Shown: in pieces, positions 52,089 through 64,000 of the stretch
How positions within the stretch are numbered: the stretch's first letter is position 1
How the letters are laid out: each line of letters starts with the position of its first letter
NCBI RefSeq assembly: GCF_036711975.1
Contig: NC_091976.1
Location: 12,648,001 to 12,712,000, forward strand
Length of the DNA stretch: 64,000 bases
Source of the DNA: Onthophagus taurus
Taxonomy: Eukaryota; Arthropoda; Insecta; Coleoptera; Scarabaeidae
Reading direction: 5' to 3'
The notes under the pieces: model-generated
What the model was told of the DNA's origin: nothing
The model's input: the letters and a program-made list of their open reading frames with translations, nothing else
Databases searched by the model: none
Made by a program: the position numbers and the translations under genes

Positions 52089-52426
52089 TGATACATAGTG
52101 CAACTTTACCGAGCTATATTAACAAAACAAATCGTTTGTCACATGTCATAATATTGGTTAAATATTATAATATCTTCATATCGTTAAATTTTGCGGTTGG
52201 CGATAAAATGTTGTATGCAACACTGTTAAGAAAATACACACAAAAAAATGTTAAGAAAATATTAGAAATGCAAACGGGAAAATTTGAAACACTTATAAAT
52301 GTCAATTAAAGTTCGGGTGAAAAACTGTCAAATAAAGAAAATGAAATATAAACGTCTTACAGTTCTTGTAGAATCTTTTAGTGGTTGTTCAAACAGAAAA
52401 TAAAAGTCGAAACACTTTTAACGAAC

Positions 52427-52964
52427 TGTTACCACCCCCGAGCGTGAGGTGGTAAGAGGCCCCCGAGTATATTCTCGGAGAAGGGTATTCTCCTCGGGTC
52501 CACTCTTTATAGGAGCCTCGTAACGTGGTTAAGTGTGTCAAAAGACAATGGGGAAAGGATCAAGCGGCGGATGTCAATAAACAAAATACAAAAGATCAAT
52601 AAAAACTTTGAATTAATTAATGAGATACTTTAATTTAATTTCTTTTAAACGCAAATAAAATAAACAAAAAAAAAAAAAACAGTAATTATTTCTATCTCGT
52701 ACTCACATAATGGTTTTTGGGTTGATTGACACCTTTTTCTTCTCTACTTTCTTCTCTTATTTTTCTCTTTTAATTTCTTTTAGTCTTTTTCCACTTTTCA
52801 TTCCCACACTTTACCCATGCCTCTACTCTAACTCTCGACCACACTCTCTCTAACTTCTTCTGTCTGCCTGCTCTTTTCGCGAGTCCCTCATCCGTTGTCC
52901 CCACTCCCAAAATATTTCTGTACTTCCCCGAATTAAATATAGATATCTTTTCTGACTTGTTACA
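52427..52964 (-). repeat. 3' LTR of the retrovirus-like element
   Basis: Begins TGTTACCACCCCCGAGCGTG and ends TTGTTACA in plus-strand reading. It is identical to 62412-62949 except one base. Flanked on the left by the target copy GAAC. Confidence 0.95.
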
Positions 52965-52966
52965 TT

Positions 52967-52980
52967 ACTCCCCCCTTTAA
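52967..52980 (-). other. Polypurine tract
   Basis: The minus strand reads AAAGGGGGGAG immediately upstream of the 3' LTR, the expected primer for plus-strand DNA synthesis. Confidence 0.8.
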
Positions 52981-53899
52981 TTAAGATGTTGGTTACGCAT
53001 TACCAACAACTTATTTAAAAAGAAAACAGAAATATTTTGTATAATCCAAGTGTCAATCAACAATTTTATCAAAAATCCAATACATAATTAAACATCAAAA
53101 TAAACTTAACTCTATTACAAAAAGAAATTGAAATATTTTTTTTTTTCTTATAAAGTACATATATGTTTATAAAACTAATGCCTTAAATACTCATCAACAT
53201 GGTCATCAACATGTTATCAATACTCGTTTACGTTTTTACCCAAACAATATATCTATTCAAGATTTTTTTTTTTTCTTCATTGTAGAGCATCATCGTTACT
53301 ATTAGTGTTAACTGGCTGTGTCAACTACAGTTGTAACTTAATTTTCGCTTTTCTTCATAACATATACATATATATTGTTTTGTTTGTTTTTTCTTTCTTT
53401 TCTTTACTTTTTAATATATATGTATTTTTTTCTTTCTTTCGAAGTTTTGTGGTAATTTTTTTTTTTCTTTTCCTGTCTTTACTTTTTCTGTATCGTTTTC
53501 CATACGACATGCCCGATAACTAACAGCTTCATCCTTCGTAGTTGTTTTTTTTTTAATCCATTCTAAGGAAAGGAAGGCGTTTCCTTTTCATTTCCCAGCA
53601 TTTTTTTTTCTTTTTCGGAGAATTATTTTGATAAGATATATTGCGTTATTCAATATGCAAACCTTTGTTTAAATCAAAACTTTTCATTCATAAATTTAAA
53701 AAATTTTTAACAACTCAAAAAAAAAACTATTCGAAACTTATTACCTCCACATGGTGATGAGTATCAAACTTTCTTAACTTTCTCTTAATGAATTATTATT
53801 TTTTTTTTCCTTTTTCATAACAATAACTTCTTAACCTAATTACAGACAATAAGAGTGTCTTTGTGTTACAAACACGTAACGACATATTTAATCGAAAAT
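52981..53899 (-). other. Noncoding 3' region between env and the 3' LTR
   Basis: About 900 bases, very rich in T and C on the plus strand (A and G on the RNA strand), with many T runs. The ORF 53305-53523 (plus) is low-complexity and not a gene. It may hold packaging, splicing or transport signals, but none can be named from sequence. Confidence 0.5.
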
Positions 53900-55879
53900 T
53901 CATGGCGTCTCTTGTACAATATGGATTTCCGGATACATCACTTTACTGCTATGGGGTGCTGTAGGTTGAACAGAATGACCATCTTGTACTCGTGCAAAAT
54001 CTTCCTGGTTCTCTGGATCTGATACTTTGTGATTATAACTTCGATGTAAAAACCATGAAGTTAAAGTCGTCCAAAAACTGGCAATAATCGAAAATCCGCA
54101 TCCCAGAGCCTGGTATAAAACAAAACCATTTAAAATTACTGAACAAATATATTTTAGGATGATAAATGCTATGTATATTCCCATAAATCCTGACATAAAA
54201 ATCCCAATATCGGTAAACCAACCCCAAGCATAACTTAGTGTCGACTTAGCGATTCGTTTAATTTCTTTTGAACTAAATAATTTTGTTGTGTCGTACTGGT
54301 TTGAATCATCAGTTCTACCTGCAACCCGATTGACTAAAAATGAGGTAATTGCATCACGCTCGGATCCAAACAGAAAATTATGTTGAATCTTATCAATTTC
54401 ATTTTGAGTATACAATCCTCCACTTCCCAAATTTCGAATAGGACTAAATTTTATATTATTTTCATCGTTAATTTCTAAAGAAGCTGGAGAATTATACACT
54501 GTGGGATATGGACTAAATCCTACCCATCGGTTCTCTATGTAAAATAGTGAAGGAGCTACCGGAGAGCACATTATCTCTTCGGCATGCTCTTGCACTACAT
54601 GTGTGATTGGAGCCATAAATAATGACTCATTGTTATTAACCAGTATCGGCAATTCATTATAGCATTTATCAACCCTTCGCACTTCTGCGATTTTTGGTTC
54701 ACATTTAATGATGTATAAAACTTCCCCTAAAACCCTTCCCATATACCCCAGAGAAGTCTTGAAAATACTGGCAATAGCATTTGTATTTAAAGGTGCCATC
54801 AACAATCTATTTCTCAATACTTCTCTCTTTATTAAACATCTTCGATATACTGCTTGAACATGTAACTCTCTAAACAATAATTTTGACGAAATTTCAATAT
54901 ACATAAATTTTGAATTAACATATGTCAACAGATTTATATTATTGACGTCATGAGTTTTAGAATTTAAATGATAAAAAGCATTTTTAGATTTTGTTACTAG
55001 TAATCGAGGATGTTCGGTAACCCAAACCTCATAGTTACATACAATACCCTTCCTTAGTAGATTCAATGCAAAGATGTATTCGTCTTGCTCAACAACCAAA
55101 TAATTTTCAACTGTATCCTGACTACTTACTGAAACTTCTGTTCCAATACCTTCATAAATAATTGAATATTGCCGTTTCTTACAAGCTCCTTGTTCTATTT
55201 CATCCCAAATAGTTTCAACTGCTTCAACATCCATACAGTATCCATCTACAAATGGACATGTAACTCCTCCCATCAATGATATTTCATTAGAATCCAAAGC
55301 GATAGTGGCATAATATTCTTTTAACATAAATGTAACAGCTGCAGTAACAACTACCCTAGACCATGTCTGACCATTTTCTGTATAAACTGTTCCTTCACAA
55401 TCTCCGTTCATAGATAACTTCCCAGCAACGGTAATTGATGCAGATGTTGTGGCATTTACTTTTATATTAGAAATAACATTCCCTGAATATCCTATATAAG
55501 TACCAGTATTATGAAGTTTTCGACACTCATCTCGTCCAATTGGCCTGATGGTTTTCATCAACCCTTGGTGGACATCACTAACATGACTATTCATACCACA
55601 ATATCTTATCAACCGTGTTACTTCTATAAGACAAGTTTTTACTTTTATTTTGGAATAGTCATTTTTCTGAATCACTCGGACATTTATTTTCTTCTCGGTG
55701 TAGTTTGTTTGCGGAGATGGACAGGGTGCCACATCGTGAAGCGACACTGCTGTAATGTTGGTAGATGGTCCCCGACAATCGTATACAATTAAACCCTTTA
55801 TATACATCCCCGTAAAAATCAGTAGCCAACTAGTTAAATAGAACCTGAAAATATATATTTTATTAATGTATTCAAACAA
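53900..55879 (-). CDS. env: Envelope glycoprotein resembling chuvirus-group G proteins
   Basis: 659 residues, intact. An N-terminal hydrophobic signal (about residues 11-33, FYLTSWLLIFTGMYIKGLIV) leads to an ectodomain opening with YDCRGPSTNITAVSLHDVAP, followed by CGMNSHVS (about 94-101) and SITVAGKLSMNGDC. Two adjacent hydrophobic segments (about 558-584 and 585-612) anchor it, with a 47-residue tail. The ordered cysteines and these motifs resemble the surface glycoproteins of the chuvirus group of negative-strand RNA viruses, which insect LTR elements are known to have captured. It does not look like the baculovirus-F-type errantivirus envelope. Its role would be attachment and membrane fusion. 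It starts 151 bases after pol and would need a spliced RNA. Family assignment is from remembered patterns, not a search. Confidence 0.75.
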   Translation of the reverse strand: MFEYINKIYIFRFYLTSWLLIFTGMYIKGLIVYDCRGPSTNITAVSLHDVAPCPSPQTNYTEKKINVRVIQKNDYSKIKVKTCLIEVTRLIRYCGMNSHVSDVHQGLMKTIRPIGRDECRKLHNTGTYIGYSGNVISNIKVNATTSASITVAGKLSMNGDCEGTVYTENGQTWSRVVVTAAVTFMLKEYYATIALDSNEISLMGGVTCPFVDGYCMDVEAVETIWDEIEQGACKKRQYSIIYEGIGTEVSVSSQDTVENYLVVEQDEYIFALNLLRKGIVCNYEVWVTEHPRLLVTKSKNAFYHLNSKTHDVNNINLLTYVNSKFMYIEISSKLLFRELHVQAVYRRCLIKREVLRNRLLMAPLNTNAIASIFKTSLGYMGRVLGEVLYIIKCEPKIAEVRRVDKCYNELPILVNNNESLFMAPITHVVQEHAEEIMCSPVAPSLFYIENRWVGFSPYPTVYNSPASLEINDENNIKFSPIRNLGSGGLYTQNEIDKIQHNFLFGSERDAITSFLVNRVAGRTDDSNQYDTTKLFSSKEIKRIAKSTLSYAWGWFTDIGIFMSGFMGIYIAFIILKYICSVILNGFVLYQALGCGFSIIASFWTTLTSWFLHRSYNHKVSDPENQEDFARVQDGHSVQPTAPHSSKVMYPEIHIVQETP

Positions 55880-56030
55880 TTATACTCCTATAAATCTATA
55901 AATCCCAAGAAAACGTATTATATCTATGTATTAATATTCGAAGCCTTAACAATATACTATGTCTAGATAGATAAAACCTTATTAATAATAATCAATGAAA
56001 ACAACCAACAAAATGTATACATAAAAATTA

Positions 56031-59000
56031 TTAAATTCTTTTCGGTAATACCCATGGCAATTCTGGTACATCACCTCTACTTCTGGTAAGATATGAATGC
56101 CCAGTGTTTTCTTCTCTTTGAACCGTTGTATCATTCCCTGGTTCAGTTGTTTCGAGGTTAGTATCTTCTATATTTTCTTCTGGAACGTATTCCACTATAC
56201 TCTGAGCTGTCTGTTCTTCTAACAGATCTTCCCCTCCGTCTTCGTTATTTTGGTCCGGAAATACTTTCCAATCATACCACATAGGTTCTTCTATATCAAA
56301 ACTCAATTTGTTGTTCTCTAGGTCTTTAGTATCTGACTCTTTCTTTCTCTTTTCTTCAACATCTCCCTTATAGAGTTTTATACGATTCGAATGTACTAAT
56401 TCGACTTTTGAACCATTAATTTCCTTTATTTTAAAGTTTACTGGACCTGTTTGTCCTATTATTCGGTATGGTCCTACCCATGGTTTACTTAACTTTAAAT
56501 TTACTCCAGTTTTGATCCCTGGATTATATAATAATACTTTGTCACCTAGTTCCAGATTTTTCTCTTTAGCCCTTTTATTAAATTGAACTAATTGTTTATT
56601 TTTAGCTTTGACCTCATGACTTCTCACAAACTGATACGATTGATGTAATCGTTCCAGCAGTTCGGATACGTAATTGTCGTCATAATCATATCGATAACGA
56701 TCTGGTTTGGTATAAAGTTCGTAGGGTAGATTCATATCCCTTCCGTGAAGTAAAAAGTATGGAGACTCTCCGGTAGTAGAATGTACGTTGTTTCGGTAAG
56801 CCATCATTACATATGGCAACCAATCGTCCCAATCTTTTTGTTTATCATCTACCACATGAGATAGTAAGTCCTTTAAAACTCGATGCATTCTCTCAATCAT
56901 GCCATTCGTTTGTGGATGATATGGAGTAGTGCGAATCTTTTTGATTTGTAGTAATTTACATACTTCGTCCATTAATTTCGACATGAAATTTGTGCCTTGA
57001 TCGGTAAGTAATACCTTTGGAGTCCCATGCCGCGTAATCACATGCACCACAAAAGCTTTCGCCACTGTCTCAGCCTTCTGATTTTGCAATGGGATCGCTT
57101 CGGTGTATCTCGTAAAATAATCTTGAACCGTGAGTATATATTTATTTCCATTGTAGGTGATCGGCAATGGTCCTACGATATCCATTGATACCCTTTCAAA
57201 TGGTTCCTGTGCTGGCGTAAATAATTGTAATGGAGCTGGTTTTAAATGTGACGAACTTTTCCGTTTGTTACAGGCTAAACATTTGTCACAGTAGCTTTTT
57301 ATATCGTCGCCCATATTTTTCCAATAGTACTTTTGCTTCACCTGAGACTTGGTTTTATCGACTCCAAAATGTCCAGCATACGGCAAGTCATGACATTGAT
57401 ACATAATTTCTTTTCTTAATTCCGTTGGTACTACTAATCTATGGTATCTTTCATTCTGTTGTTTTGTTTTATATAGTATCCCCTCTTCGTCAATAAAGAA
57501 ATCTAAATACTTTGGATCGTTTTCAATTCTTGCAATAATAGTTTTAGCAAAACAATCCTCCTTCTGTTTATCTGCTATTGTTTTTATCTCTTCGGTGGTT
57601 AAAGAATTTACTCCTGCCTCTATTTGCACTCTGGATAACGCATCAGCGTTTCCGTGTAATCGTCCTGGTCGATGTGTTATTTCAAAGTCGTATTCTGCTA
57701 GCGTTAATGCCCATCGGGCTAAACGTGAGCTTGGATCTTTGATTGACAATAACCATTTTAATGGTCGATGATCTGTTATGATTTTAAAATGTTTTCCAAA
57801 CAAATATACCCGATAATGTTTAACGCCCCATATCACCGCCAAGCATTCTCTTTCTGTAGTGGAGTAATTCATTTCTGCTTTTTGTAGTTGCCTACTGGCA
57901 TATGCCACAGGTTTTTCATGTCCTCCAACTTTTTGACTTAGTATAGCTCCTATTGCTATTCCCGAAGCATCCGTGGTTAGATAAAAAGGTTGTGTGAAAT
58001 CAGGATAGTGTAAAACAGGTTTATCACACAAAGATTTCCGAAGTAAAGTAAATGATTTTTCCTGTTCTTCTCCCCAAATAAAAGGTTGATCCTTTTTTGT
58101 TAATGCCGTTAAAGGTTTAGCAATTGCTGAATAACTTTCAATAAACCGCCTATAAAATCCTGCTAATCCTAAAAATGCCCGAATATCTTTTACAGTTTTT
58201 GGTTTAGGATAATTAAGTACAGCTTGAACTTTTTCTGCATCTGGTTTGATTCCTTCGTTTGAAATAACGTGACCCAAATATTTGGTTTCGGATAGTAAAA
58301 ACTTGCATTTACTTGGTTTTAATCTCAAATTTGCCCTTCTAATTCTTTCAAACACTTCTTTCAGTCTGTTTAGATGTTCAATTATTTCGTTCCCACTGAA
58401 TACTATAACGTCGTCTAAATAAACTAAACACTTACTCCCCGTTAATCCCGATAAATTGGTATTCATTAACCGTTGAAAGGTACTGGGCGCATTGACCAGA
58501 CCAAATGGCATCTTTTTACAATGATAGTGCCCTTCTGGCGTACTAAATCCGGTTTTTTCTTGATCTTCTTCTTCTATTTCCACTTGCCAATACCCAGAAG
58601 CAAGGTCTAGTGTTGTAAATATGGTAGAACTTCCCAATCTATCTATTGTTTCGTTCAGGTTAGGTAACGGATAGAAATCCCTCTTAGTGACTGAATTTAA
58701 CCCTCGGTAGTCAATACATACTCGAACTTCTTGTTTTCCATTATCAGACTTTTTCGGTACCATAACAACAGGTGCTGACCAAGGTGATTGCGACTCTTCA
58801 ATCACTCCTTCGTCAAGCATTTTGCTTATTTCTTTATTTAAAATTTCCCTTTGACTATGTGGTACTCGGTATGGTGGTTTTGCAATTGGATGACAAGCCT
58901 CTGTAACAATTCTATGTTTCACGCCATTAGCAGTTCCCAATTTATTATTTCCAAATAAAAAGATATCTTTGTACTCAATTAACAATTTTAATAATAACCG

Positions 59001-60794
59001 TTTATCTTCACCTTTCAAATGATTTAAATCAAATAACTTTTGTATGTCATCCTCCGCGTTTTCAATTCCAGTATCTATTACACGAACTGAATAAGGGTTC
59101 ACATCCCTATCCAATCCATTAAGATGATAAATTCTCACCCAAATATTTGATCCTTTAAATATCCATCTGATCATATTGATAACTCTGTCCCACTTTAACC
59201 CATCTAACCCACAAGCAATCTTTGGTAGGGCTAATTTATGAATATTATTTTTCTCACAAAATTCCCTTAATTTTCCCAAGGTATAAAACAAATCTTCGTA
59301 AGTTGGTTTATAAAAATATTTTCTTTTAGTAATAAGGTACAAAATATACCTTCCATCTCGTCTTAAATACAAAACATCTCTCACTTTTGGATTCTGTTTA
59401 TTTAATTCTTTTATTCCCATAAATTTCTCTTTGACTTCAGCAGCGATTCCTGCTCCCATTTTCAAATCTTCACTCACACAATGTGCCAAGCTATAATCCC
59501 TCGGCGCATCAAATAAATTACCCTTATCTTCAAGAATATCCCAATTTTCTACAATATTTTTCGATATTTTCTCTTCGTATTCCCTGTAATTTCCATACAT
59601 TTTCTCCCTTTTATGAGTAGTGCTATTTACACCATTTACATTTTCAAGTTGAGGTACCTCTTCCCAAATCCCAGCTGATGAATTCTCATCTCCTTTGTGT
59701 TCAATATCAATTTTATTTACGCGCGTAATAATTCCAACACTTGTTCCCTTATTCAACATTAATGGTTTCTCGGTGACGTTGATCAGGCGCACCGGAACCC
59801 GTTGATTTTTATTTACCCTTGTTACAACTCTTGCTGACATTGACCCATAAACACCCGTATCAATTGGTTCAATGATAACTTCTTCATCTTTTTCCCATTG
59901 GTTTTGTAAAGCTTCACAAACAACCTCACATCGTCCCGGAATTTCTAAAGCCTCCATCAACAGAGCCGAACAGGGACCAACTGTTCGTTCTGTATCACCA
60001 ATCATCTTTGGTCCAGATGACGATGATCTCTCCGTGTCCTTTTCTTTCTCTCGATGATCCTTCGTTTGTGTTTGCATTACTCCAACCTTTTCCATATTTT
60101 CTTTATTCGCTATCTTTTGTTTATCGCCCCCATTTGACAAACCAAAACCCAATTCCGAAGATTTATCGGAAAATAATAGTTCTTCATTTTTCGATGTTAA
60201 CACCTTAAATGGGAAACTTTTAGTTAAAACTGGAGAGGGAGTTTTCATAATTTGTGTTTGGCAGTTGCTTTTCTCGCTCATATTCATGTCATTTTGTAAA
60301 CAGTTCCCATGCGCAGTAGAAGATTTTTGTCTTTTTGATGATGTCATGATCAATTTCAAGTGAATATGTCCTAACTTCAAAATTCCCTGATTATAATCAA
60401 GAATAGCTTGATTGCTAATTAGGAAGTCGCATCCGATTATCCCATCGGTTTCAATGGCAATATTTTTACAAATCACACAATTAATATTAAATTTCTTGTT
60501 TTTCACCCTAAAATCTAACAAAGAAAATCCTACTCCTTCTACTTCATTTCCCGTGATACCTTTTAAAGTTATATGTTGTTGCAAATCTAATTGGTAATTA
60601 ATTTTTGTCCGGAGTAAACTCTCCTCCTTCAATAACGATACTGCTGAACCCGAATCAATCAAAAATGATAATTTTGTACACCCCATTGTTAAAAAAATTA
60701 TGGATTTGTCTGCCTCTGAATTTATAGCACTGCTAACTGATTTTACTATTGCGTTTTTATTTGTAATCTGATCATTAACCCCTGGATTTAACAT
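56031..60794 (-). CDS. pol: Pol polyprotein: protease, macro domain, RT, RNase H, integrase
   Basis: 1587 residues in one open frame. Protease active site DSGS at 47-50 and GCDFL at 121-125. A Gypsy-typical linker is at 270-360. A macro domain of OARD1/TARG1 type is at about 425-560 (separate entry). RT at about 640-890 has YLDD at 792-795. RNase H at about 935-1060 has TDASG (941-945) and TDHRPL. Integrase zinc site H1135, H1142, C1169, C1172; catalytic triad D1205, D1265, E1301 with 35 residues between the last two. A GPY/F module (KPWVGPYRII) is near 1430. Every catalytic residue looked for is present. The start ATG overlaps the gag stop; expression may be by frameshift at GGGAAAA or by reinitiation. 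The unusual part is the macro domain, otherwise this is a normal Ty3/Gypsy Pol. Confidence 0.95.
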   Translation of the reverse strand: MLNPGVNDQITNKNAIVKSVSSAINSEADKSIIFLTMGCTKLSFLIDSGSAVSLLKEESLLRTKINYQLDLQQHITLKGITGNEVEGVGFSLLDFRVKNKKFNINCVICKNIAIETDGIIGCDFLISNQAILDYNQGILKLGHIHLKLIMTSSKRQKSSTAHGNCLQNDMNMSEKSNCQTQIMKTPSPVLTKSFPFKVLTSKNEELLFSDKSSELGFGLSNGGDKQKIANKENMEKVGVMQTQTKDHREKEKDTERSSSSGPKMIGDTERTVGPCSALLMEALEIPGRCEVVCEALQNQWEKDEEVIIEPIDTGVYGSMSARVVTRVNKNQRVPVRLINVTEKPLMLNKGTSVGIITRVNKIDIEHKGDENSSAGIWEEVPQLENVNGVNSTTHKREKMYGNYREYEEKISKNIVENWDILEDKGNLFDAPRDYSLAHCVSEDLKMGAGIAAEVKEKFMGIKELNKQNPKVRDVLYLRRDGRYILYLITKRKYFYKPTYEDLFYTLGKLREFCEKNNIHKLALPKIACGLDGLKWDRVINMIRWIFKGSNIWVRIYHLNGLDRDVNPYSVRVIDTGIENAEDDIQKLFDLNHLKGEDKRLLLKLLIEYKDIFLFGNNKLGTANGVKHRIVTEACHPIAKPPYRVPHSQREILNKEISKMLDEGVIEESQSPWSAPVVMVPKKSDNGKQEVRVCIDYRGLNSVTKRDFYPLPNLNETIDRLGSSTIFTTLDLASGYWQVEIEEEDQEKTGFSTPEGHYHCKKMPFGLVNAPSTFQRLMNTNLSGLTGSKCLVYLDDVIVFSGNEIIEHLNRLKEVFERIRRANLRLKPSKCKFLLSETKYLGHVISNEGIKPDAEKVQAVLNYPKPKTVKDIRAFLGLAGFYRRFIESYSAIAKPLTALTKKDQPFIWGEEQEKSFTLLRKSLCDKPVLHYPDFTQPFYLTTDASGIAIGAILSQKVGGHEKPVAYASRQLQKAEMNYSTTERECLAVIWGVKHYRVYLFGKHFKIITDHRPLKWLLSIKDPSSRLARWALTLAEYDFEITHRPGRLHGNADALSRVQIEAGVNSLTTEEIKTIADKQKEDCFAKTIIARIENDPKYLDFFIDEEGILYKTKQQNERYHRLVVPTELRKEIMYQCHDLPYAGHFGVDKTKSQVKQKYYWKNMGDDIKSYCDKCLACNKRKSSSHLKPAPLQLFTPAQEPFERVSMDIVGPLPITYNGNKYILTVQDYFTRYTEAIPLQNQKAETVAKAFVVHVITRHGTPKVLLTDQGTNFMSKLMDEVCKLLQIKKIRTTPYHPQTNGMIERMHRVLKDLLSHVVDDKQKDWDDWLPYVMMAYRNNVHSTTGESPYFLLHGRDMNLPYELYTKPDRYRYDYDDNYVSELLERLHQSYQFVRSHEVKAKNKQLVQFNKRAKEKNLELGDKVLLYNPGIKTGVNLKLSKPWVGPYRIIGQTGPVNFKIKEINGSKVELVHSNRIKLYKGDVEEKRKKESDTKDLENNKLSFDIEEPMWYDWKVFPDQNNEDGGEDLLEEQTAQSIVEYVPEENIEDTNLETTEPGNDTTVQREENTGHSYLTRSRGDVPELPWVLPKRI
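59115..59525 (-). other. Macro domain (OARD1/TARG1-like ADP-ribose hydrolase) within Pol
   Basis: Pol residues about 424-560. Motifs in order: KGNLFDAP (ligand-binding strand), SLAHCVSEDLKMGAGIA, the RRDGRYILYLITK strand, YKPTYEDL, LPKIACGLDGLKW, and RIYHL. Human TARG1 uses Lys84 (in LITK) and Asp125 (in GCGLD) to remove ADP-ribose from glutamate or aspartate; here these are Lys490 and Asp531, both kept, while the loop glycine before CGLD is Ala. The domain is in frame with protease and RT, so retroviral-type protease probably releases it. It likely reverses ADP-ribosylation of proteins or nucleic acid ends, perhaps to counter host PARP-type defence; the purpose is inference. Confidence 0.9.
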
Positions 60795-60800
60795 TTTCCC
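60788..60800 (-). promoter_or_regulatory. Gag-pol junction: slippery heptamer and overlapping stop-start
   Basis: The minus strand reads G GGA AAA TGT TAA in gag phase. GGGAAAA fits the X XXY YYZ pattern for -1 frameshifting, and a -1 slip enters the pol frame at once. The same bases hold ATGTTAA, where the pol ATG (60794-60792) overlaps the gag stop (60790-60788), so termination-reinitiation is also possible. Confidence 0.65.
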
Positions 60801-61954
60801 TCGGATTGGGGTACATACGAGGTGGCATTTAGGTTTAAATGACTGGTTCCCGTTCTTATAAAATTTTGTGTTTCATTTGGGTTGCGTGATTCATTTCTTA
60901 TATTTCCATTTTGATGGTTAAACTGAGTATGGGATCGAGTAGTATGGTTACTCGTACCGGCTTGTCCCCTTGATTGGTTATTCTTTTTCCAACACTTAAC
61001 TTCTACGTGACCCGTTTTTTTACAAAATCTACAAACAACCTCATTCCGACAATTCCCAGAAAAATGTCCCGGTTGATAACATTTGTAACACACATTATTT
61101 GATTTTTGATTATATTTAAAATCAGGTTTTGTTGAGTTAGATTCGAAAGGTTTAGAAAATGATGAATGATATGAAATGGATGGGCGATTCTTTTTATTGA
61201 ATTGCTGTGGTTTAAAATTTGGTTTATTAAAACTAACCCGTGGTGCAGTTGAATGAGGCTGAGATTTAGAAACACCTTCTTGAGAGAAATTACAAGCATA
61301 TTCAGAATAATAACTATGTGAACAGTAGTTAATTGTATTTTCCGTCATCATCTGGTTCAATTCTTCTTGACTCGCTATTTCTGCGGCTTTATCGAGTGTT
61401 AAATCACTCTCTCGCATCAGCAAAACTCCAATAATCTTAGAAATTTCCCGTTTTATTCCCATTCTAAATTGCGTCAATAGAATATTGTTATGTTTTTTAA
61501 TTATACCCTCCCGTTCCGCCTGTGAAGCGTCAATTAAATCCTCTTCTAATACCTCCTGTCCAATTAATTTTAGTCGCGTGAGAAATTGACTGATAGTTTC
61601 GTTACGGCCCTGTATACATCTTGACAAAATTAGTTGAGCCTGACCTGGTATTTTCAATTTCGAAAATTTTGTAATAAATTTTTGTTTGAATTGCTTATAT
61701 GTTATTTCATTTGTTGATAAATTTGATTCGCTTTTATAGTAACTGAATGCGTCTCCCGTTAGTCTACATCGCACGATTTTAATTAAGTCTTCGTCTCCAA
61801 TGTTATCTAAACTTGCTCTCTGTTCTACTCGTTCAAAAAAATGTTTAACGTTCTCTTTACCAGTAAAATTTTCAATTGAATTTAAAATAGATGCTAATGA
61901 TGGTTTAGGCATTTCAACTTTTACGATAGGTTTTTCATCTGTATTTGTAGCCAT
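60788..61954 (-). CDS. gag: Gag polyprotein with two CCHC zinc knuckles
   Basis: 388 residues from the ATG at 61954. An N-terminal capsid-like domain (residues about 15-215, with SILNSIENFTGKENVKHFFE and ISQFLTRLKLIGQEVLEED) resembles Gypsy Gag. The C-terminal part is basic and rich in Asn, Ser and Gln, with two knuckles: CYKCYQPGHFSGNC (289-302) and CRFCKKTGHVEVKC (308-321). Gag builds the particle and packages RNA. It ends GKC* at the slippery site that opens pol. No damage is seen. Confidence 0.93.
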   Translation of the reverse strand: MATNTDEKPIVKVEMPKPSLASILNSIENFTGKENVKHFFERVEQRASLDNIGDEDLIKIVRCRLTGDAFSYYKSESNLSTNEITYKQFKQKFITKFSKLKIPGQAQLILSRCIQGRNETISQFLTRLKLIGQEVLEEDLIDASQAEREGIIKKHNNILLTQFRMGIKREISKIIGVLLMRESDLTLDKAAEIASQEELNQMMTENTINYCSHSYYSEYACNFSQEGVSKSQPHSTAPRVSFNKPNFKPQQFNKKNRPSISYHSSFSKPFESNSTKPDFKYNQKSNNVCYKCYQPGHFSGNCRNEVVCRFCKKTGHVEVKCWKKNNQSRGQAGTSNHTTRSHTQFNHQNGNIRNESRNPNETQNFIRTGTSHLNLNATSYVPQSEGKC

Positions 61955-62390
61955 TATTTTGGTTTTTAGTTCGAATAAAACTTAAATAAAATGTAAGTAT
62001 ATGGTATTTGCAAAATAAAAATTTTATAAAGGGGTCCGTTATCAAGAGTAATTCGCAACTTGATGATTTCGCGATTTCTAAAGTGCGATACGCTGGAACA
62101 GCTCAGACCGTCTGGATCTCAGTTTATAATATGATAAATTTGTTTTAGCAAAAATACTACCTTTCTCTCTCTATCTCATTAAAAAAAAGATTTGAAGCTC
62201 TATTTTAACTCAAATGACCGACACAAAATAACAATGAAAATAATTTCGATTTTTACATAACCAAATCTATGTTGTTGGGATTAATTTTAATTTGAATAAA
62301 GGGGAATTTCTCATATTTTTACATACATCTCACCGTTAACACGTCTCCACCCGTCTTCAACACACATCCCACACCGCTTCAACACACATC
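61955..62390 (-). other. Leader between primer site and gag
   Basis: About 440 bases of 5' untranslated RNA. Near 62350-62395 CTTCAACACACATCCCACAC and CTTCAACACACATCCCACCC form a short direct repeat next to the primer site. A splice donor for env RNA should lie here, but I cannot single one out. Confidence 0.5.
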
Positions 62391-62407
62391 CCACCCCGCT
62401 GCCACCA
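62391..62407 (-). other. tRNA primer binding site (probably tRNA-Leu)
   Basis: Four bases inside the 5' LTR the minus strand reads TGGTGGCAGCGGGGTGG. The first 12 bases complement the CGCTGCCACCA end known from tRNA-Leu species. The other Gypsy elements in this window use a tRNA-Lys-type site instead. Confidence 0.6.
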
Positions 62408-62411
62408 AATA

Positions 62412-62949
62412 TGTTACCACCCCCGAGCGTGAGGTGGTAAGAGGCCCCCGAGTATATTCTCGGAGAAGGGTATTCTCCTCGGGTCCACTCTTTATAGGAG
62501 CCTCGTAACGTGGTTAAGTGTGTCAAAAGACAATGGGGAAAGGATCAAGCGGCGGATGTCAATAAACAAAATACAAAAGATTAATAAAAACTTTGAATTA
62601 ATTAATGAGATACTTTAATTTAATTTCTTTTAAACGCAAATAAAATAAACAAAAAAAAAAAAAACAGTAATTATTTCTATCTCGTACTCACATAATGGTT
62701 TTTGGGTTGATTGACACCTTTTTCTTCTCTACTTTCTTCTCTTATTTTTCTCTTTTAATTTCTTTTAGTCTTTTTCCACTTTTCATTCCCACACTTTACC
62801 CATGCCTCTACTCTAACTCTCGACCACACTCTCTCTAACTTCTTCTGTCTGCCTGCTCTTTTCGCGAGTCCCTCATCCGTTGTCCCCACTCCCAAAATAT
62901 TTCTGTACTTCCCCGAATTAAATATAGATATCTTTTCTGACTTGTTACA
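62412..62949 (-). repeat. 5' LTR of the retrovirus-like element
   Basis: 538 bp, identical to 52427-52964 except one base. Followed on the right by the target copy GAAC (62950-62953). The ORFs 62311-62526 and 62755-62955 are chance frames. Confidence 0.95.
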
Positions 62950-63282
62950 GAACATCTATTCGAAATAACACTTTAAGCACAGAAAATTGACGCGTGGTCT
63001 CTTGCACGTGAACGAACTCTTATAGAAAAAACAACTGAATAACAAAACTTAAAAAATACGGAACGGCCGACTAATTAAATTATAATTAACAAAAATAACA
63101 GAAACTATTAACTTTTAAACATTACCGCCCGCCTTGCCGAACGGACGGCAACCGAAATAACAATAAAACATGTGAAAAGAAAGCATAACCTAATATTGAA
63201 ACATAATCAAACACAACAAAATAAAAGAACGACGGACAACGTTAAAAAAATCCGAAACAATTAATGAAAACGAAATTAACAT
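62950..63282 (-). other. 3' noncoding region next to BEL/Pao pol
   Basis: AT-rich with a GC-rich patch (ACCGCCCGCCTTGCCGAACG, 63123). It is probably the 3' UTR or LTR start of the BEL/Pao element whose pol ends at 63283, cut by the retrovirus-like insertion. No second LTR copy is available to test this. Confidence 0.4.
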
Positions 63283-64000
63283 TCAATTATCGGCACTCGG
63301 TAAGACACAAAGTTTAGTGACGGGTCGCGTTAAAGTCGTTGTTGGTGTCTTCACCGTTGCCACTCGCGCAAATCCGTCCGGTCCGGGGTGGAGATGCGTA
63401 ATTCGACCAAGTGCCCACTTGGACGGAGGGAAACGTTCGTCCTTTATAAGAACCAACCTTCCTACTTGAGGTAAGTTACGTTGCTGATACCATTTATTGG
63501 AATTTTGAATAAACTGGAGATAAAATCTCTCCCATTTTAGCCAGAAGTCGTCTATCATTCGTCGCAAATGTTGCCATCGTGAAAGACGTGAAATGTTAAC
63601 GTCGAGCAAGGAAGGCTCAGGAACTACAGTGAGGGAACTGCCGATGAGGAAATGGGCGGGCGTTAAAATTTCGTAAGAATTAGGGTCATCGGAGATTGAA
63701 CAAAGAGGTCGTGAGTTCAATACGGCCTCAATTTGAACGAGGACCGTCGAAAATTCTTCATAAGTAAGTGTTGTTGCTCCGACGACCTTCTTAAAGTGAG
63801 TTTTAACTGATTTTACGCTCGCCTCCCATTTTCCTCCGAAGTGGGGCGCTGCTGGCGGATTAAATTTCCATTCGATCCCGTCACAACTGAGCAGATGTGC
63901 AAGATGTCTCCACTGCGACGAGGCTGCTGAGAACATTGCTCGAAGTTCCTTATCAGCTCCCACCAGATTTGTTCCACAATCGCTATAGATGCAGCTTGGG
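63283..64000 (-). CDS. pol: BEL/Pao Pol, integrase C-terminal part (runs off the window)
   Basis: 226 or more residues, open: FSAASSQWRHLAHLLSCDGI, PPAAPHFGGKWEASVKSVKT (integrase catalytic Glu at KWE), LTPAHFLIGSSL, then the C-terminal domain RWQHLRRMIDDFWLKWERFY and GRLVLIKDERFPPSKWALGR, typical of BEL/Pao (DUF5641 type). It ends ...LPSADN*. Upstream pol domains lie beyond 64000, so completeness is unknown. A decayed relative is at 41060-41640. Confidence 0.88.
   Translation of the reverse strand, partial: PSCIYSDCGTNLVGADKELRAMFSAASSQWRHLAHLLSCDGIEWKFNPPAAPHFGGKWEASVKSVKTHFKKVVGATTLTYEEFSTVLVQIEAVLNSRPLCSISDDPNSYEILTPAHFLIGSSLTVVPEPSLLDVNISRLSRWQHLRRMIDDFWLKWERFYLQFIQNSNKWYQQRNLPQVGRLVLIKDERFPPSKWALGRITHLHPGPDGFARVATVKTPTTTLTRPVTKLCVLPSADN

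What the first reader, a model, noticed from the sequence alone, without database searches (positions are those of the whole stretch)
59115..59525. Retroelement Pol with an embedded ADP-ribose hydrolase (macro domain)
A complete OARD1/TARG1-like macro domain lies between protease and RT in an open frame, with Lys490 and Asp531 at the positions of the known catalytic Lys84 and Asp125. Macro domains in RNA viruses counter ADP-ribosylation-based immunity; an equivalent in an LTR retroelement would imply PARP-type defence against retrotransposition or DNA ADP-ribosylation at integration. I do not recall this arrangement being described, but I could not search.
Basis: partly seen in the sequence, partly recalled or inferred. 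Interest (0 to 1): 0.92.

Follow-up and report, generated by a model that had tools for sequence, protein, structure and literature searches.

The report
Retroelement polyprotein carrying ADP-ribose eraser
An intact, recently copied retrovirus-like element in this animal genome carries, inside its replication polyprotein, a complete domain of the kind cells use to remove ADP-ribose tags, and related elements carry the same domain at other places, which suggests that such elements repeatedly take up this eraser.

Summary

It is not unique. The 41 closest of 55 RT relatives checked carry the domain: 11 upstream of RT, 30 downstream. Public proteins show it between RNase H and integrase, after integrase (some vertebrate-retrovirus-like), or in gag-like protease proteins. 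Trees speak against one clade of all these. Several lineages keep a decayed version. A review cites macro domains in fish retroviruses; I found no report for insect Gypsy Pol.

Most likely the element uses it to erase ADP-ribose placed by host PARP-type enzymes. Activity and benefit are inferred, not shown. New variant of a known kind.

The parts
52427..62949 (-). whole element, LTR to LTR
   Evidence: LTR pair; GAAC at 52423-52426 and 62950-62953 as 4-bp target duplication, read
62412..62949 (-). 5' LTR in the element's own sense
   Evidence: 538 bp, 1 mismatch to the other LTR
52427..52964 (-). 3' LTR in the element's own sense
60788..61954 (-). gag, 388 aa
   Evidence: Pfam Retrotrans_gag 2.1e-06
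56031..60794 (-). pol, 1,587 aa open frame
60420..60674 (-). aspartic protease domain
   Evidence: Pfam gag-asp_proteas 3e-4, 21.8 bits, below its cut-off 28.2; DSG motif read in the sequence
59601..60287 (-). protease-to-macro linker, evolving close to neutrally; internal control
   Evidence: no Pfam match up to E 0.01; 4 syn / 15 nonsyn differences
59121..59546 (-). TARG1/OARD1-type macro domain
59325..59327 (-). codon of Lys490 (TARG1 K84)
59202..59204 (-). codon of Asp531 (TARG1 D125)
58263..58760 (-). reverse transcriptase
   Evidence: Pfam RVT_1 2.4e-35; best solved relatives are Ty3 RT, E 8e-70
57690..57998 (-). RNase H
   Evidence: Pfam RT_RNaseH 2.3e-41
56913..57431 (-). integrase zinc-binding and core domains
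   Evidence: Pfam Integrase_H2C2 3.7e-23, rve 2.5e-15; RNase H to zinc finger spacing only 64 aa, too short for a second macro
53900..55879 (-). env, 659 aa, chuvirus-type fusion glycoprotein
   Evidence: Pfam Monjiviricetes_fusion 4.2e-181

Best explanation
SHOWN: the element encodes a Pol with a complete TARG1/OARD1-type macro domain that has the key ADP-ribose-loop and catalytic residues, in a young multi-copy family. INFERRED: the domain is a working mono-ADP-ribosyl (Glu/Asp-linked) hydrolase, carried in the particle or pre-integration complex within Pol or as a cleaved product. It removes ADP-ribose that host PARP-type enzymes put on Gag, Pol, the cDNA or chromatin around the new insertion, and so relieves a block to replication or silencing. 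Retroelements have probably taken the domain up more than once. In this family it sits before RT, while the family's nearest RT relatives carry it after RNase H, so it was moved or replaced from another source here.
Against: No activity, expression or phenotype is shown. Related families keep a macro without the catalytic set (D, E, H55/56), so the fold can serve without catalysis; in one D pair it looks constrained (8 nonsynonymous of 18 changes, p 0.0017). Close copies of families C and F show no constraint on the macro (C pairs 1/3, 1/3, 0.5/2.5 and 1/0 syn/nonsyn; F pairs 2/6, 5.5/13.5, 6/11). The macro-against-linker difference alone is borderline (Fisher p 0.051). [quoted passage not shown]
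Confidence: 0.6

Rival explanations
1. Structural or binding module: the macro fold is kept as a spacer, dimer contact or ADP-ribose reader in Pol, and hydrolysis is not what selection keeps.
For: Families D, E and H55/56 carry macro segments in open frames without the full catalytic set (D and H55/56 lack K84 and the loop; E48 lacks K84 and D125, E50 keeps a Lys but not the Asp). Insert scores of six decayed loci are reached by 0 of 1000 shuffles each. One D pair looks constrained.
Against: In the window family and in 39 of 46 retroelement rows the catalytic residues are kept, also where identity to the window macro has fallen to about 40-49%. In family E the decayed macro diverges faster than RT: 0.32 against 0.72 amino-acid identity between two copies.
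Confidence: 0.2
2. Integration-step enzyme: the hydrolase clears ADP-ribose, including on DNA ends, that PARP-type enzymes add at the nicked integration intermediate, helping gap repair rather than countering a defence.
For: In many families the domain lies just before integrase; in some proteins it follows integrase. TARG1 and its structural neighbour DarG act on ADP-ribosylated DNA (recalled).
Against: In the window family it lies before RT, and in others in protease proteins without RT, so nearness to integrase is not required.
Confidence: 0.15
3. Assembly artefact, processed host OARD1 inserted into one copy, or a broken passenger.
For: The host has its own OARD1-like gene with a short intron (L051).
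Against: Ten stop-free full copies on seven contigs, related families at other Pol positions in this genome and in other species, purifying pattern.
Confidence: 0.01

Closest known systems
Human TARG1/OARD1 (C6orf130)
   Same: Fold, 141-residue match, K84 and D125, ADP-ribose loop
   Different: Stand-alone cell enzyme; here embedded in a retroelement Pol at 48% identity
Fish epsilon-like endogenous retroviruses with macro domain proteins (Basta 2009, known to me only through PMC4977317)
   Same: A retroelement carrying a captured macro domain
   Different: Vertebrate retroviruses, additional open frames.
dUTPase in lentivirus and betaretrovirus polyproteins (recalled)
   Same: Cell-derived enzyme placed in alternative slots of a retroviral polyprotein
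   Different: Different enzyme, fold and substrate
Macro domains of alphaviruses and rubella virus
   Different: Another macro subfamily, 10-14% identity, in RNA viruses
Anakin: BEL-Pao elements with a chuvirus glycoprotein (PMC7642597)
   Same: LTR element with a chuvirus-type env
   Different: BEL-Pao; the words 'macro domain' and 'ADP-rib' do not occur in its text

Membership tests
TARG1/OARD1-type macro domain | Sequence and fold closest to TARG1 rather than other macro classes | tested here: met
TARG1/OARD1-type macro domain | Catalytic Lys84 and Asp125 and the Gly-rich loop | tested here: met
   LITK, GLD and MGAGIA motifs
TARG1/OARD1-type macro domain | Hydrolysis of Glu/Asp-linked ADP-ribose | not testable with these tools
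   needs enzyme assay
Ty3/Gypsy LTR retrotransposon (Metaviridae) | Order PR-RT-RNase H-integrase flanked by LTRs | tested here: met
   with an extra domain between PR and RT
Ty3/Gypsy LTR retrotransposon (Metaviridae) | RT closest to Ty3/Gypsy rather than retroviral RTs | tested here: met
   Ty3 chains E 8e-70 and 8e-69, best retroviral chains about 1e-30; apart from the four retrovirus-like rows at 100/100
Macro-bearing vertebrate-type retroviruses (P0025, P0027, P0028, P0030, P0034 as stand-ins) | Retroviral RT/RNase H and a macro that groups with vertebrate OARD1 | tested here: not met
   RT tree; the window macro does not group with OARD1 plus P0025/28/30
Errantivirus | Baculovirus-type envelope gene | tested here: not met
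   Monjiviricetes_fusion is the only Pfam match of env up to E 0.01; the defining feature as worded in PMC12440569

The most novel reading that the evidence does not exclude
Probability: 0.4. Interest if true: 0.85.

Novelty: new variant of a known kind. Interest (0 to 1): 0.74.

Why it matters
If the domain is active, a mobile element brings its own ADP-ribose eraser, which would make ADP-ribosylation a host weapon or control point against retroelements outside the interferon-bearing vertebrates. Capture at several polyprotein positions, in retrovirus-like elements, Gypsy elements and viruses from arthropods, points to a common pressure and gives a testable set: active, decayed and lost versions in one genome.

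Tried and rejected
Assembly artefact or single chimera: rejected. One origin for all insect Gypsy macros: weakly rejected, p-AU 0.035. The window macro descending with those of its RT sisters (B, C, G, F33-35): p-AU 0.0215 with F33-35 held in, 0.055 without them; groups were named after seeing a tree. Direct capture from the host's own OARD1-like gene: not rejected, p-AU 0.33; the donor is unresolved. A and E as one RT clade (one move to the protease-RT slot): not rejected, p-AU 0.12. Macro remnants in the five macro-less inserts by sequence: none; one insert has a below-cut-off Pfam match to another family, PWP3A-B_C, E 5.5e-4, and the best PDB match is E 0.018 to a glycanase. Viral contig scan with the macro piece: no relative; with alignment A1 it could not start. 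L013 was dropped from the selection reading because its match seems to run past a break. For the second macro tree I kept 39 of 69 rows, leaving out decayed, long-branched and redundant ones; in the 69-row tree the supports differ (OARD1 with retrovirus-like rows 86/89, B-C-G 95/54). Rejection of one retroelement clade is not proof of many captures, since some stand-alone rows may themselves come from elements. In the RT tree 12 of 18 loci were labelled macro-less, though L058 later showed a faint macro. The RT search scored 114 of 2010 candidates and listed 115 matches; I cross-matched the first 55 of these with 78 of 83 macro rows. E-values are for 33 inserts only, and its profile contains rows that it then scores; the decayed ones were not in it. 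No species name was obtained; 'insect' rests on named relatives and was not tested. Expression and particle data: none.

Full report
The observation. Minus-strand frame 56031-60794 is an intact Pol of 1,587 residues with RT, RNase H and integrase over Pfam cut-offs and a protease just below. Gag (60788-61954) and a 659-residue env (53900-55879) flank it, between two 538-bp LTRs with one mismatch and a GAAC repeat on either side. The RT is closest to Ty3 among solved structures, E 8e-70 against about 1e-30 for retroviral chains. Between protease and RT, piece window:59067-59600 matches human OARD1 at E 2.3e-39 without a gap. A profile of 17 relatives gives 4.5e-59 for TARG1 and 1.1e-12 for the next class, DarG.

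Copies. The own genome (290.8 Mb, 33 contigs) has 83 listed matches to the piece, a lower bound. Ten are full, stop-free and 98-100% identical, seven of them 100%, on seven contigs. Distinct differences across these copies against the window copy: macro 6 synonymous / 4 nonsynonymous (p 0.005), linker 4/15 (p 0.60), RT 9/12 (p 0.02); macro against linker Fisher p 0.051. So the macro looks constrained much as RT does, while the linker beside it drifts. Counts are small. Close copies of families C and F show no such constraint.

Relatives in the genome. Seventeen of the 83 rows lie in 1,692-residue frames of another family (B) at about 44% identity. In 20 loci fetched, pieces of the window Pol show the macro after RNase H, mostly with integrase following, in families B, C, D, F and others, and before RT in the broken copy L031 and family E. 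Of the first 55 of 115 listed RT matches, the top 41 all have a macro within 3 kb: 11 upstream of RT (window family) and 30 downstream. Spacing agrees: RNase H to zinc finger is 64 aa in the window family and 225-239 aa in B, C and F34.

Relatives elsewhere. Three searches gave 4, 34 and 13 proteins. By piece matches, of these 51: 10 have RNase H-macro-integrase, and P0020 (Athalia rosae) has RNase H-macro without a matched integrase; P0023 has macro-integrase; 6 have the macro after integrase, five of them with the RNase H family PF00075, and one of these, P0028, matches gammaretroviral RT best; 9 are protease-macro proteins without RT whose first half looks like gag by eye; P0006 has a Pfam gag domain and three macros. 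None of the 51 has the window's protease-macro-RT order. Named holders include Athalia rosae and the aphid Uroleucon formosanum.

Trees. RT: the window family is sister to F33, B, C and K70; the clade has 97/93. Macro (39 of 69 rows): it groups instead with P0039, P0012, the aphid-type rows, P0004/P0044 and others, at 86/88, while B, C and G form their own clade (100/96) and three retrovirus-like macros join human OARD1 (98/92). Holding the window macro with those of its RT sisters costs 20 log units, p-AU 0.0215; holding all 28 retroelement-type rows together is rejected at 8e-07. Most simply there were at least two captures, and within this clade a move or replacement. The alignment is short (146 columns), roots are midpoints, and the donor is unresolved.

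Mechanism. Shown: a complete, catalytically equipped and probably constrained TARG1-type domain in a young, multi-copy element. Inferred: it hydrolyses ADP-ribose during replication. Support from outside: host PARP-domain matches at 5 places; TARG1-like domains in Kadipiro virus VP8, thrips RNA viruses and an iridovirus; in PARP-1-null flies 5 of 8 significantly changed mobile elements rose and 3 fell, with an indirect route not excluded by the authors (PMC7712786, passages).

What is known. PMC4977317 (passages) says some epsilon-like sequences of ray-finned fish include open frames for macro domain proteins, citing Basta 2009, whose text I have not seen. I found no account of a macro domain in insect or Gypsy Pol in the listings of searches, nor in term searches of PMC12440569, PMC7642597, PMC10084718, PMC12992720, PMC9289625 and PMC6338049 (of PMC6338049 I also read part 1 of 4). 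The library lacks most subscription journals and states that it holds no bioRxiv preprints. Hence: new variant of a known kind.

Noticed in passing
window 53900-55879: Intact chuvirus-type (Monjiviricetes) fusion glycoprotein as env of a Gypsy element; PMC10084718 (passages) reported no clear capture of such a glycoprotein by Gypsy. Env pieces also occur downstream of Pol in L036-L041.
   Followed up: partly
L060, L061, L063, L065, L067 (RNase H to integrase insert): Confidently modelled 105-residue domain (pLDDT 90.4) with no match over a Pfam cut-off and no PDB sequence match under E 0.018, whose best structural re-alignment is TARG1.
   Followed up: partly
P0006: Gag-type protein with three tandem macro domains, two of nearly full length in the profile and one partial.
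   Followed up: no
P0005, P0007, P0008, P0009 and L051: Thrips proteins of 699-803 aa carry an OARD1-type macro within a longer protein; the gene of this genome (L051) also seems to continue upstream, by eye.
   Followed up: no
P0036: Planococcus citri protein with an RT domain (LINE-like by eye) and a C-terminal macro identical to that of P0035; may be a gene-model fusion.
   Followed up: no
window 63283-63999: Frame open at the window edge with Pfam DUF5641 (1.2e-32); looks like the integrase end of another LTR element (recalled).
   Followed up: no
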